A stretch of DNA of 64,000 bases from Asanoa sp. WMMD1127 (GTDB lineage: Bacteria; Actinomycetota; Actinomycetes; Mycobacteriales; Micromonosporaceae): assembly GCF_029626225.1 (NCBI RefSeq), contig NZ_JARUBP010000001.1, forward strand, positions 6,200,001-6,264,000. Direction: 5' to 3'. The translations under genes and the position numbers were made by a program. The notes beneath the pieces are model-generated. The model had not been told where the DNA came from, did not search any database, and saw only the letters and a program-made list of their open reading frames with translations. Below, one piece after another: positions 31,871 through 35,016 of the stretch (within the stretch, counting starts at the first letter, position 1; each line of letters starts with the position of its first letter).

Positions 31871-32884
31871 GTGACGATCATTCGCGTTCCGTTCCATCAG
31901 GACGAGCGGCTGCCCGACGACAGTGTCCCGGTGGGCGGTGAGACGGTCGAGCCGGCGCTGCCGGACGGCGCCATCTGGGAGCGGCTGACCGCGTTGCACG
32001 ACGCGGTCGCCGACCGTGTGGCGCGGCAGATCCGGGCCGGCGCGGTGCCGACGGTGGTGTCGGGCGACTGCCTGGTCGCGCTGGGCACGGTGGCCGGCGT
32101 GCAGCGGGCCGGCGTCGACCCGGGCCTGGTGTGGTTCGACGCGCACGGCGACGTCCACACGCTCGACACGACGACGTCGGGCTACCTCGGCGGCCTGTCG
32201 CTGCGGTTGGCCCTGGGGGCGCACCCGGACCTGGTGGCCGGACCGCTCGGCCTGCGGCCCGTCGAGCGCGCCCTCCTGGTCGGCGCCCGGGACCTGGACC
32301 CGGCGGAGGTCGCCTACCTGTCCGGCGACACCGCGCCCGCGGTGCGTGCTGTCGACGACCTGGGCGCCCGGCCGCGAGACCGGGAGGCTGCGGCGCCCAT
32401 CGTGGACGACCTCGGCGCGTTGCCGCGACGCTCGGACGGCGATGTCCCGGCGGCGCCGATCGTGGACGACCTGGGCGCGTTGCCGCGAGGCTCGGACGGG
32501 GATGTCCCGGCGGCGCCCGTCGTGGCCGACCTGGGCGCGTTGCCGGATGGTCCGTTGGTGTTGCACGTCGACGACCTGGGCGCGTTGCCGCGAGGCTCGG
32601 ACGGGGATGTCCCGGCGGCGCCCGTCGTGGCCGACCTGGGCGCGTTGCCGGATGGTCCGTTGGTGTTGCACGTCGACGTCGACGTGATTGACGACGCCGA
32701 GCTGCCCGGCCTGCTCTTCCCGGCTCCCGACGGCCCGTCGGCGGCCGCGGTGCACGAGGCGATGCGGCGCATCCTGGCTACCGGCCGGGTCGTCGCCCTC
32801 GACATCGCCTGCCCGTGGCATCCCGCCCCGACGGCCGAGATCCAGGCCGCCCGCCGAGACCTCCTCGCCACCCTTACGTCCTAG
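31871..32884 (+). CDS. Arginase/agmatinase-fold protein with internal duplication
   Basis: 337 residues. The ureohydrolase motifs are present: SGDCLVALG, the metal site WFDAHGDVHT, and HVDVDVIDD. The expected product is a Mn-dependent amidinohydrolase or relative; the substrate is unknown. Between the two metal motifs is a low-complexity insertion of repeating VDDLGALPRGSDGDVPAAP and VADLGALPDGPLVLHV, including an exact 35-residue tandem duplication. A normal member would pass from VRAVDDLGALP straight to GPLVLHVDVDV. The insertion is in frame and preserves the second metal motif, so activity may survive. GTG 31871 start. Confidence 0.8.
   Translation: MTIIRVPFHQDERLPDDSVPVGGETVEPALPDGAIWERLTALHDAVADRVARQIRAGAVPTVVSGDCLVALGTVAGVQRAGVDPGLVWFDAHGDVHTLDTTTSGYLGGLSLRLALGAHPDLVAGPLGLRPVERALLVGARDLDPAEVAYLSGDTAPAVRAVDDLGARPRDREAAAPIVDDLGALPRRSDGDVPAAPIVDDLGALPRGSDGDVPAAPVVADLGALPDGPLVLHVDDLGALPRGSDGDVPAAPVVADLGALPDGPLVLHVDVDVIDDAELPGLLFPAPDGPSAAAVHEAMRRILATGRVVALDIACPWHPAPTAEIQAARRDLLATLTS
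32465..32674 (+). repeat. Exact 105-bp tandem duplication inside the arginase-fold gene
   Basis: 32465-32569 and 32570-32674 are identical over 105 bases (35 codons). A related but diverged 60-base copy precedes them (32405-32464). The perfect identity points to a very recent event. Confidence 0.95.
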
Positions 32885-32903
32885 GACGCTTTACGGAGTG
32901 TGC
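32879..32903 (+). promoter_or_regulatory. TCCTAGGACG intergenic motif, copy 3
   Basis: TCCTAGGACG followed by TTTA and a run ending GTGTGC. Its first bases overlap the arginase stop; it ends 121 bases before the sigma-hydrolase fusion start. The upstream GAACCATCA half of copies 1 and 2 is absent. Confidence 0.5.
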
Positions 32904-33024
32904 TGCCGGTCGCGATGACAAGCCAGGCCCCGACAAACAGCAGGGGTGCCTTAAATCTGTTATCCGGCGGTCGCCCCGGTCGTCTCCTGTGCGCCACGAT
33001 GAGGCGGCTTCGAGGAGAGGTGCG

Positions 33025-35016
33025 ATGCGCGAAGGGTACGAGCAGGCGTTGGTGTCCGCTGCTCGCGACGGTGATCCGCGGGCGGTCGACCGGCTGGTGG
33101 CGGAGTACCTGCCGCTGGTCTACAACGTCGTCGGTCGCGCGCTCGACGGGCACGCCGACGTCGACGACGTCGTGCAGGAGACGATGCTGCGCTGTGTCAC
33201 CGGTCTGCGTCAGCTGCGCGACCCGGCGCGGTTCCGGGCGTGGCTGGTCGCGATCGCGGTGCGGCAGGTGCGCGACCGCCAGGCGGACCCCTACCGGGCG
33301 CGGCAGGCCGGCCACCTCGGCTACCCCGGCGACCATGACGTCAGCGACCCGGGCGCGGACTTCGCCGACCTGACGATCCTGCGGCTGGAGCTGTCCGGGC
33401 AGCGGCGCGAGGTGGCCGAGGCGACCCGCTGGCTTGACGCGGACGACCGCGAGCTGCTGTCGCTGTGGTGGCTCGAGGCGTCCGGCGAGCTGACCCGCGA
33501 CGACCTGGCGCAGTCGCTGGGGCTGTCGAACCAACACGCGGCGGTACGCGTCCAGCGCATGAAGGCCACCCTCGACACCGCCCGGATCGTGGTGCGGGCC
33601 CTGGCTGCCCGGCCACGCTGCGCGGAGCTGGCCGACGTGCTCGCCGGCTGGTCGGGCCGGCCGGACGCGTTGTGGCGCAAGCGGCTGGCCCGGCACGTCC
33701 GCGAGTGCCCGCACTGTGGTGTGGCGGTGGGGCAGCTGGTGGCAGCGGAGCGGCTGCTCGCCGGCATCGGCCTGGTCGCTCCGGCGGCGGGGCTGGTGGC
33801 GGCGATGGTCAGCGCCGCTGGTGGCGCGATCGCCGGAGGAGCGGTCGGCAGCGCGGCGGGCGCCGCCTGGAACGGTGCGACCGGCTCGGCCACGGGCGCC
33901 TGGAGCACCACGACGGCCGTGCCAGGCGCCGGAACCGCTCAGCTCGGCGGGGTGGCGGCCACGGGAGCCGGCGGGCCCGGGAGCGTGGGCACCGCGGCCA
34001 AGGGTGCGGCGTGGGTGTTGAAGGGTGTCGCGATCAGCAAGCCGGTCGCGGCCGCGGTCGCCACGGTGGCGGTCGCCGCCGCGGCCGTGGTCACGTTCGG
34101 TGTCGTGCGGAGCGGGGACCCGGTTCCGGCCGCGGCGGTGTTGCCTCCTGCGGCCTCGAGCGCCCCGCCGCGCGTATCCCCTGATGCGACGCCGCCGCCG
34201 ACGGCGTCGCCGTCGGCGGCGGTCTCGCCCACCGCGAAGCCGTCCCCGAAGAAGAAGCCCGTGGCGCCGTTGCCGCCGACGCGTAAGACGGCGAAGAAGG
34301 GCGCGGCGGTGTGGGACTTCCCGGCGGTGAACGCGGGTCTGAAGGCGGTCGGGGCGTCCTGGTACTACAACTGGGGGGCCGACAACGACCGGATGCCGGC
34401 GTCGGGGGTCGAGTTCGTGCCGATGATCTGGGGCACGGCGAACGTCACGGACGCGACCCTCGCCAAGGCGAAGCGGGAGGGTGACACGCTGCTCGGGTTC
34501 AACGAGCCCGACATGGCGGAGCAGTCCAACATGACGCCGGGCAAGGCGCTGGAGCTGTGGCCGCGGCTGCAGGCGACGGGGATGCGGTTGGGCAGCCCGT
34601 CGGTGGCGTTCGGGGCGGCGGACAGCGGGAAGTGGCTGGACCAGTTCATGGCGGGCGCGAAGCAGAGGGGCTACCGGGTCGACTTCATCACGCTGCACTG
34701 GTACGGCGGTGACTTCTCGTCGGCGGCGGTCGGGCACCTGAAGGGCTACCTGCAGCAGGTGTACGCGAAGTACAAGCTGCCGATCTGGTTGACGGAGTTC
34801 GCGTTGATCCGGTTCGACGGTTCGGGGGCGTCGTATCCGAGTGACGCGCAGCAGGCGGCGTTCATCGAAGGTGCGACGGACATGCTGCAGGGCCTGTCGT
34901 ACGTGGAGCGTTATTCGTGGTTCGGTCTGCCGTCGGCGGGTGACAGCCGGACGGGTCTCTACAAGGAGAACGGCACGTTGACGCCGATGGGCAGCGCCTA
35001 CCGGGCGGCGGGCTGA
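33025..35016 (+). CDS. ECF sigma factor fused to membrane anchor and glycosyl hydrolase
   Basis: 663 residues in one uninterrupted frame. Sigma region 2 (about 5-85, LVAEYLPLVYNVVGRAL, DVDDVVQETML) and region 4 (~140-195) come first. A zinc-finger-like HVRECPHCGV (~225) follows, then a Gly/Ala-rich hydrophobic stretch, a membrane span near 340-362, a Pro/Ser/Lys linker (~365-418), and an asl1-like GH128-type domain (~420-663) with acid/base E494 in GFNEPDM and nucleophile E591 in WLTEFAL. The sigma part would be cytoplasmic and the hydrolase part outside. ATG 33025 follows GAGGAGAGG. ECF groups with such extensions are known in actinobacteria; ligand and targets are not. Confidence 0.88.
   Translation: MREGYEQALVSAARDGDPRAVDRLVAEYLPLVYNVVGRALDGHADVDDVVQETMLRCVTGLRQLRDPARFRAWLVAIAVRQVRDRQADPYRARQAGHLGYPGDHDVSDPGADFADLTILRLELSGQRREVAEATRWLDADDRELLSLWWLEASGELTRDDLAQSLGLSNQHAAVRVQRMKATLDTARIVVRALAARPRCAELADVLAGWSGRPDALWRKRLARHVRECPHCGVAVGQLVAAERLLAGIGLVAPAAGLVAAMVSAAGGAIAGGAVGSAAGAAWNGATGSATGAWSTTTAVPGAGTAQLGGVAATGAGGPGSVGTAAKGAAWVLKGVAISKPVAAAVATVAVAAAAVVTFGVVRSGDPVPAAAVLPPAASSAPPRVSPDATPPPTASPSAAVSPTAKPSPKKKPVAPLPPTRKTAKKGAAVWDFPAVNAGLKAVGASWYYNWGADNDRMPASGVEFVPMIWGTANVTDATLAKAKREGDTLLGFNEPDMAEQSNMTPGKALELWPRLQATGMRLGSPSVAFGAADSGKWLDQFMAGAKQRGYRVDFITLHWYGGDFSSAAVGHLKGYLQQVYAKYKLPIWLTEFALIRFDGSGASYPSDAQQAAFIEGATDMLQGLSYVERYSWFGLPSAGDSRTGLYKENGTLTPMGSAYRAAG

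What the first reader, a model, noticed from the sequence alone, without database searches (positions are those of the whole stretch)
33025..35016. Sigma factor, membrane span and extracellular glycosyl hydrolase in one protein
One uninterrupted frame joins sigma regions 2 and 4, a Cys/His finger, a transmembrane segment, a Pro-rich wall-spanning linker and a GH128/asl1-like domain with both catalytic Glu residues (494, 591). This could be a one-protein signalling device: wall glucan binding or cleavage outside might release the sigma domain inside by proteolysis. ECF groups with C-terminal extensions are known, but an apparently active hydrolase as sensor is striking. The TCCTAGGACG motif upstream suggests a regulon.
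Basis: partly seen in the sequence, partly recalled or inferred. Interest (0 to 1): 0.82.

Follow-up and report, generated by a model that had tools for sequence, protein, structure and literature searches.

The report
One-protein sigma factor with glucanase sensor
A soil actinobacterium makes a single membrane protein that joins a gene-switching factor inside the cell to a sugar-cutting enzyme outside it; comparisons suggest that it senses beta-1,3-glucan, as found in fungal walls, and switches on itself and, in relatives, matching enzymes.

Summary
Window 33025-35016 (Asanoa) encodes one 663-residue protein: ECF sigma factor, Cys/His anti-sigma-like finger, membrane segment, disordered Pro-rich linker and GH128 beta-1,3-glucanase domain. 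Both catalytic Glu (494, 591) are kept in 31 of 31 non-redundant fused proteins, the window's included. The architecture is in print as a kind: some ECF52/ECF53 sigma factors carry predicted hydrolase or carbohydrate-binding domains, not validated by experiment (PMC10766802).

Added here: (1) one sigma-finger chassis carries exchangeable ectodomains (GH128, CAP, AbfB, others). (2) TCCTAGGACG is no regulon marker; the sigma genes share GTTAT-N17/18-RTCTCC instead (61 of 93 upstream regions; shuffled mean 0.02). (3) Elsewhere that motif precedes secreted proteins of the sensor's own theme: GH16, GH64, GH128 and thaumatin-like genes in GH128-sigma genomes, CAP genes in CAP-sigma genomes, AbfB genes in AbfB-sigma genomes. 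In the own genome it occurs once, before this gene.

Best reading: a one-polypeptide beta-1,3-glucan sensor and sigma factor, probably released by proteolysis and autoregulated, working like the SigI/RsgI biomass sensors of Clostridium thermocellum. Ligand, release and transcription are inferred.

The parts
32959..32987 (+). predicted own promoter, GTTATC (-35-like) N17 GTCTCC (-10-like)
   Evidence: present before the gene in 6 of 6 Asanoa; GTTAT-N17/18-RTCTCC in 61 of 93 upstream regions of the family, shuffled mean 0.02; only strict copy in the own genome
33012..33020 (+). likely ribosome-binding site GAGGAGAGG
   Evidence: sequence; near-identical in six Asanoa
33025..35016 (+). sigma-finger-membrane-GH128 gene, 663 aa
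33094..33279 (+). sigma-70 region 2 (residues 24-85)
   Evidence: PF04542 E 5e-13; fold like ECF sigma region 2 structures
33433..33573 (+). sigma region 4-like helices (residues 137-183)
   Evidence: within TIGR02937 match 20-183; helices in the models
33610..33744 (+). anti-sigma-like zinc finger region with C199, H224, C228, C231 (residues 196-240)
   Evidence: invariant in 32 aligned sequences; no zf-HC2 match in this protein
33754..33810 (+). first hydrophobic segment (residues 244-262), role unsure
   Evidence: low confidence in the models
34051..34107 (+). likely transmembrane segment (residues 343-361)
   Evidence: Kyte-Doolittle mean 2.36, net +2 before it; helix 339-356 at low confidence
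34120..34296 (+). Pro/Ser/Lys-rich linker (residues 366-424)
   Evidence: sequence; pLDDT under 50 up to residue 409
34297..35013 (+). GH128 domain (residues 425-663)
   Evidence: PF11790 E 1e-53; 6UAQ
34504..34506 (+). catalytic Glu494
   Evidence: 31 of 31 fused proteins; altered in 6UAT
34795..34797 (+). catalytic Glu591
   Evidence: 31 of 31 fused proteins; altered in 6UFL/6UAS
32879..32888 (+). TCCTAGGACG, part of a 12-base palindrome at the end of the upstream arginase-family gene; not a regulon marker
   Evidence: 8 genome places vs 6 reversed control; kept in 6 of 6 Asanoa

Best explanation
The protein is a one-polypeptide sigma/anti-sigma/sensor. The N-terminal ECF sigma factor is held inactive at the membrane by its own fused finger domain; a transmembrane segment and a long flexible linker place a GH128 domain outside. 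GH128 binding (and perhaps cutting) of external beta-1,3-glucan is the signal; a protease then frees the sigma domain, which starts transcription at GTTATC-N16/17-GTCTCC promoters. In the own genome the only strict target is its own gene, so the response would amplify the membrane-bound glucanase itself; in some relatives the sigma would also switch on secreted beta-1,3-glucan enzymes (GH16, GH64, GH128, thaumatin-like). Shown by sequence: architecture, intact active site, conserved motif before the own gene, matching theme of part of the motif-linked genes. Inferred: ligand, topology, self-inhibition, proteolysis, transcription.
For: Domains. E494 and E591 in 31 of 31. In six Asanoa the GH128 domain is as constrained as sigma: dN/dS 0.151 vs 0.154, finger 0.327, linker 0.454. 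Motif in 61 of 93 upstream regions against shuffled mean 0.02 and reversed 0. In 24 GH128-sigma genomes 47 motif sites against 7 reversed controls; 21 of the 47 are the sigma gene's own (by comparison). Of the other 26, 7 precede beta-1,3-glucan-type genes (GH16 x3, GH64, GH128, thaumatin-like x2) in 6 genomes and 3 precede DUF1996 genes. No beta-1,3-glucan-type gene was found at the 42 non-self sites fetched from the 23 other genomes (6 of 24 vs 0 of 23 genomes, Fisher p 0.022). Over four sensor types 17 of 19 genome-target pairs match, permuted mean 5.4, none of 20,000 as high. Without the motif, a separate CAP gene lies in the flanks of 11 of 43 CAP-sigma loci, AbfB in 2 of 5 AbfB-sigma loci and thaumatin-like in 1 of 23 GH128-sigma loci, with no cross-matches. 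Segment 343-361 or its counterpart has net positive charge before it in 23 of 23 proteins examined. Proteolytic activation was proposed for ECF52 SCO4117 (passages).
Against: No experiment. 16 of the 26 non-self sites precede nothing of the theme (some intragenic), and 14 of the 42 in the other genomes likewise. 32 of 93 upstream regions lack the motif, among them all 10 AbfB-sigma genes and 4 GH128-sigma genes. In Asanoa no glucanase was seen with the strict motif; the best GH16 orthologue group shows another palindrome instead. One-mismatch N18 copies in the own genome do not exceed control (13 vs 11), though they do in the five other Asanoa (36/10, 19/10, 28/12, 17/15, 20/10), and N17 copies do in the own genome (33 vs 14); the genes behind them were not examined. 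Fisher test and permutation ignore phylogeny (the GH128-sigma genomes are mostly not Streptomyces, the others mostly are), and the alginate-lyase/repeat-protein class was paired after seeing the data. Two hydrophobic segments leave topology open. Domain packing is unsure (pTM 0.54 and 0.43).
Confidence: 0.7

Rival explanations
1. The GH128 domain is a pure binding module: the Glu pair is kept but turnover plays no part in signalling, as described for the low-activity GH10 of RsgI6.
For: Passages of PMC4711584: RsgI6-GH10 has very low activity but binds its carbohydrates. Other ectodomains on the same chassis (AbfB, CAP) are not hydrolase families.
Against: Both Glu are kept in 31 of 31 and 61 GH positions are near-invariant; constraint equals that on sigma. 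This argues for an active site but does not prove turnover.
Confidence: 0.45
2. The protein is mainly a membrane-anchored beta-1,3-glucanase whose fused sigma factor only tunes its own amount; there is no wider regulon in Asanoa.
For: The strict motif occurs once in the own genome, before this gene; the genome holds only one PF11790 match.
Against: In some relatives the motif precedes other secreted glucanases; weaker promoters in Asanoa would be missed (one-mismatch excesses).
Confidence: 0.3
3. Two products are made: a free sigma factor and a separately started membrane-anchored hydrolase.
For: GTG codons occur before the transmembrane segment, and a start there would give a signal-anchored enzyme; not tested.
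Against: Sigma and GH128 stay in one frame in 31 proteins with linkers of different length (chosen for this, but no GH128 hit in the sigma-family loci was out of frame).
Confidence: 0.07
4. The shared motif is the target of another regulator, and the matched genes are only neighbours in function.
For: No transcription data; all 10 AbfB-sigma upstream regions lack the motif while a neighbouring AbfB gene has it.
Against: The motif has a spacing usual for ECF promoters (recalled), lies before sigma genes that carry different ectodomains, and is rare in the genomes.
Confidence: 0.12

Closest known systems
ECF52/ECF53 sigma factors with fused anti-sigma, transmembrane and carbohydrate domains (SCO4117 of Streptomyces coelicolor)
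   Same: ECF sigma, zinc finger, transmembrane segment(s), Pro-rich extension and carbohydrate domain in one protein; hydrolase domains predicted in some members (passages of PMC5826349, PMC8999054, PMC10766802)
   Different: Here the ectodomain is a GH128 with an intact active site; SCO4117 carries a carbohydrate-binding module and a different proposed motif (CSGYN-17-SRHA).
SigI/RsgI biomass sensing of Clostridium thermocellum (RsgI6 with GH10, RsgI5 with CBM42)
   Same: an extracellular carbohydrate domain senses a polysaccharide, and an autoregulated sigma controls enzymes for it (passages of PMC4711584)
   Different: two proteins, SigI class of sigma, RsgI autoproteolysis (title cited in PMC10766802); here one polypeptide with an ECF sigma
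IutY (ECF243) of Pseudomonas putida
   Same: sigma fused to its anti-sigma, released by regulated proteolysis (passage of PMC8999054)
   Different: cell-surface iron signalling; no hydrolase described
GH128 enzyme of PDB entry 6UAQ (recalled as AmGH128_I of Amycolatopsis mediterranei)
   Same: 58-59% identity over the domain, same catalytic Glu pair
   Different: the deposited construct holds no sigma factor

Membership tests
GH128 (subgroup I-like) | Glyco_hydro_cc domain over its cut-off | tested here: met
   182.6 bits vs cut-off 21
GH128 (subgroup I-like) | both catalytic Glu | tested here: met
   E494, E591; 31 of 31; the positions altered in 6UAT, 6UFL, 6UAS
GH128 (subgroup I-like) | beta-1,3-glucanase activity | not testable with these tools
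   no assay
ECF sigma factor | ECF superfamily model with regions 2 and 4 | tested here: met
ECF52/ECF53 | fused zinc finger, transmembrane helix, Pro-rich extension, carbohydrate domain | tested here: met
   description from passages of PMC5826349 and PMC10766802
ECF52/ECF53 | sequence assignment by the group HMMs | not testable with these tools
   classification models not on hand; founding papers not held
class I anti-sigma domain (zinc-binding) | C/H...HxxxCxxC motif | tested here: met
   C199, H224, C228, C231 invariant in 32 aligned sequences
class I anti-sigma domain (zinc-binding) | Pfam zf-HC2 match in this protein | tested here: not met
   no zf-HC2 in P0001 at E up to 1; among 7 relatives scanned only L011 showed it, 18.8 bits, under its cut-off of 22.2
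SigI/RsgI | SigI sigma plus separate RsgI anti-sigma | tested here: not met
   single ECF-type polypeptide; no RsgI family among the 5 Pfam rows; the likeness is of working, not of membership

The most novel reading that the evidence does not exclude
A working enzyme is the sensor of a sigma factor that is physically part of it: glucan turnover by GH128 is read as the signal, and in this Asanoa the sigma serves one promoter, its own, so substrate makes the cell display more of the same enzyme. Across actinobacteria the chassis swaps ectodomains while the promoter element stays and target genes follow the ectodomain: a plug-in rule by which sensor type predicts regulon type.
Probability: 0.3. 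Interest if true: 0.82.

Novelty: new member of a known kind. Interest (0 to 1): 0.6.

Why it matters
[quoted passage not shown] A shared promoter element, and the rule that the ectodomain matches motif-linked genes, turn a large family (524 related stretches, a capped list) into testable predictions (GH128: beta-1,3-glucan; AbfB: arabinose-containing glycans; CAP: CAP proteins), and suggest ready-made one-protein polysaccharide biosensors.

Tried and rejected
TCCTAGGACG as regulon motif: rejected (8 vs 6 control). The solved GH128 as ectodomain of a sigma factor: not supported. In 394 class genomes 24 hold a close GH128, at 26 places: 6 sigma-fused (L118, L120, L124, L125, L128, L129) and 20 not; many of these show signal or lipoprotein sequences by eye, some with thaumatin-like or F5/8 parts. 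Own-genome GH16 (best group, L322 and orthologues) as target: no motif in the part scanned; other own GH16 loci had upstream regions partly out of reach. One-mismatch motif: own genome N18 13 vs 11; other five Asanoa above control (36/10, 19/10, 28/12, 17/15, 20/10); N17 33 vs 14 in the own genome, but the listing was cut before its sites, so they were not seen. Neighbours (arginase family, PLP decarboxylase, IucA/IucC synthetases; two of six scanned without Pfam match) give no glucan link. Tree: quick method, 94 rows; six truncated or frameshifted rows left out. Upstream set: 93 regions, duplicates L017 and L032 and seven overlapping, same-genome or short entries left out before the count; start sites were estimated by alignment, so some regions may be misplaced. 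L045 and L051 genomes were not held and not searched. Papers: PMC10766802, PMC8999054, PMC5826349, PMC4711584 and PMC10956234 were seen as found passages; others only in search listings; Huang 2015, Pinto 2019 and Casas-Pastor 2021 not held, known here only through the review or by recall. That the promoter element and matching rule were not seen in print rests on searches of an open-licence library only.

Full report
OBSERVATION. The frame runs from ATG 33025 to the stop at 35014-35016 and encodes 663 residues. It contains an ECF sigma factor (TIGR02937, 20-183; PF04542, 24-85), C199 and H224-x3-C228-x2-C231 (invariant in 32 aligned sequences), two hydrophobic segments (244-262; 343-361), a Pro-rich linker and GH128 (PF11790, 443-659, E 1e-53; nearest solved 6UAQ). 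AlphaFold on 21 aligned fusions gives a confident sigma part and a confident 425-663 domain, with 252-409 under pLDDT 50; mean pLDDT 70.3, pTM 0.43. A sigma-finger model (pTM 0.54) matches region 2 of several ECF sigma structures at rmsd 1.6-2.6 A; rows that span both regions have rmsd of 12-23 A, so relative placement is not informative.

RELATIVES. The source genus is Asanoa: the window protein is nearest to named Asanoa records, and the five other genomes of its genus all carry the gene at about 80-85%. E494 is Glu in 31 of 31 and E591 in 31 of 31. Deposited variants of the 6UAQ protein differ at exactly these two positions. Among six Asanoa orthologues dN/dS is 0.154 (sigma), 0.327 (finger), 0.454 (linker/membrane) and 0.151 (GH128). 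The hydrolase is thus kept as strictly as the sigma factor. That argues for a working active site but does not prove turnover: RsgI6 of C. thermocellum has a GH10 of very low activity that still binds (passage).

ONE CHASSIS, MANY SENSORS. Among 100 sigma proteins labelled by ectodomain, 46 carry CAP, 31 GH128, 10 AbfB, 6 a type without Pfam match (called X36), 1 another, and 6 truncated or frameshifted ones none (Pfam on seven examples). The own genome has an AbfB-type paralogue (L010, 51% in residues 8-281). On the sigma tree (94 rows, quick method) the labels need 6 changes, 4 being the least possible; well-supported branches force two origins each for AbfB and X36. Ectodomains have been exchanged, but rarely.

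PROMOTER. TCCTAGGACG fails as a regulon marker. Upstream regions showed another element, GTTAT-N17/18-RTCTCC, in 61 of 93 (200 mononucleotide shuffles: mean 0.02, maximum 1; reversed 0; opposite strand 4). The 32 without it include all 10 AbfB-sigma genes and 4 GH128-sigma genes. It lies at 32959-32987 in the window, is present before this gene in 6 of 6 Asanoa, and is the only strict copy in the own genome; the six genomes hold 9 copies, 6 of them before this gene, against 2 reversed controls. The other three lie in or before an aminopeptidase-like, a glyoxalase-like and a flavin-oxidoreductase-like gene (named by eye). One-mismatch copies in the own genome number 13 against 11 reversed at N18 and 33 against 14 at N17; the five other Asanoa exceed control at N18 as well. 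So weaker targets in Asanoa are not excluded.

TARGETS IN RELATIVES. In 24 genomes with GH128-sigma there are 47 sites against 7 reversed controls; 21 are the sigma genes' own (compared). I examined the remaining 26. Seven precede GH16-ricin genes (three Actinoplanes, G400, G406, G408; one Pfam-confirmed, two by 95-97% identity to it), GH64 and thaumatin-like genes (both Trebonia, G401), a secreted F5/8-GH128 gene (G280) and a thaumatin-like gene divergent from the sigma gene (G336; 67.5% identity to the Pfam-confirmed one). Three precede DUF1996 genes (two Lentzea, G280). Sixteen precede nothing of this theme: intragenic sites, a periplasmic-binding protein, a ricin-like secreted protein without Pfam match beside another sigma paralogue (L177), and a lipoprotein cut by the contig end beside the sigma gene of L031 (by eye). 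A second search covered 24 genomes, one of them the own genome and one without a match: 57 sites against 10 controls. 42 were fetched, the other 15 being sigma genes' own. The 42 are 3 CAP genes (3 genomes), 5 AbfB or GH43 genes (3 genomes), 12 alginate-lyase-like or large secreted repeat genes (7 genomes), 1 pectinesterase-like gene (by eye), 7 further sigma genes of the family and 14 others; none is of the beta-1,3-glucan type. Scored by sensor type, 17 of 19 genome-target pairs match, against a permuted mean of 5.4 and a maximum of 12 in 20,000. Glucan-type targets alone: 6 of 24 against 0 of 23 genomes, Fisher p 0.022. Both ignore phylogeny, and the alginate-lyase/repeat class was paired with X36 after the fact. 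A motif-free check agrees: a separate CAP gene stands in the flanks of 11 of 43 CAP-sigma loci, AbfB in 2 of 5 AbfB-sigma loci, thaumatin-like in 1 of 23 GH128-sigma loci, with no cross-matches; the only other hit was a CAP gene in the frameshifted, unlabelled L071.

MECHANISM. Most likely the finger holds the fused sigma inactive at the membrane, external beta-1,3-glucan engages GH128, a protease releases sigma, and sigma starts its own promoter and, in some relatives, glucanase promoters. Net positive charge before segment 343-361 or its counterpart in 23 of 23 proteins examined favours inside sigma and outside hydrolase. The conserved first segment 244-262 could be part of the anti-sigma fold or a second membrane pass; this must be settled. 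For ECF52, expression of a truncated SCO4117 lacking finger, membrane and sugar-binding parts activated its own gene, and proteolytic excision was proposed (passages). In the own genome the response may amplify only the membrane-bound enzyme itself; its PF11790 domain is the only one there.

STANDING. As a kind this is known: a 2024 review says some ECF52 and ECF53 proteins have predicted glycosyl hydrolase catalytic and carbohydrate-binding domains, with experimental validation yet to be performed. Added here are the intact GH128 pair in 31 fusions, the shared promoter element, and the match between ectodomain and part of the motif-linked genes. I found none of these three in the searches listed, which cover open-licence papers only; the founding classification papers were not available and may hold promoter logos for these groups.

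Noticed in passing
window 32390-32678: Tandem repeats (60-base x2.6, 92%; 105-base x2.1, 99%) inside the upstream arginase-family gene, just before its HVDVDVID stretch; not compared with other strains.
   Followed up: no
L010 (G000:C1:5472888-5473700): Own-genome paralogue of the sigma chassis with an AbfB ectodomain; matches in 4 of 5 other Asanoa; without the strict promoter motif.
   Followed up: partly
L318-L323 upstream regions: GH16 orthologues of six Asanoa share a conserved GAGAGCGCTCTC palindrome, like LacI-type operators (recalled), so glucanase control there may run by another route.
   Followed up: partly
L180, L182, L183: DUF1996 secreted proteins follow the motif in three GH128-sigma genomes; the domain may act on beta-1,3-glucan.
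   Followed up: partly
L120 and L129 (G336:C22): Two sigma-GH128 genes next to each other, one divergent from a thaumatin-like gene.
   Followed up: partly
L234, L240, L244, L247, L260, L264 and L239, L256, L257, L259: Large secreted repeat proteins and alginate-lyase-like proteins with the motif, in 7 genomes of which 5 are known to hold X36-type sigma genes.
   Followed up: partly
G001:C1:3174449, G002:C24:618044, G003:C65:15764, G004:C4:299872: A palindromic GGTTGACGCGTCAACC kept in four Asanoa, before a flavin-oxidoreductase-like gene where it was read (G003); looks like an operator rather than a sigma promoter.
   Followed up: no
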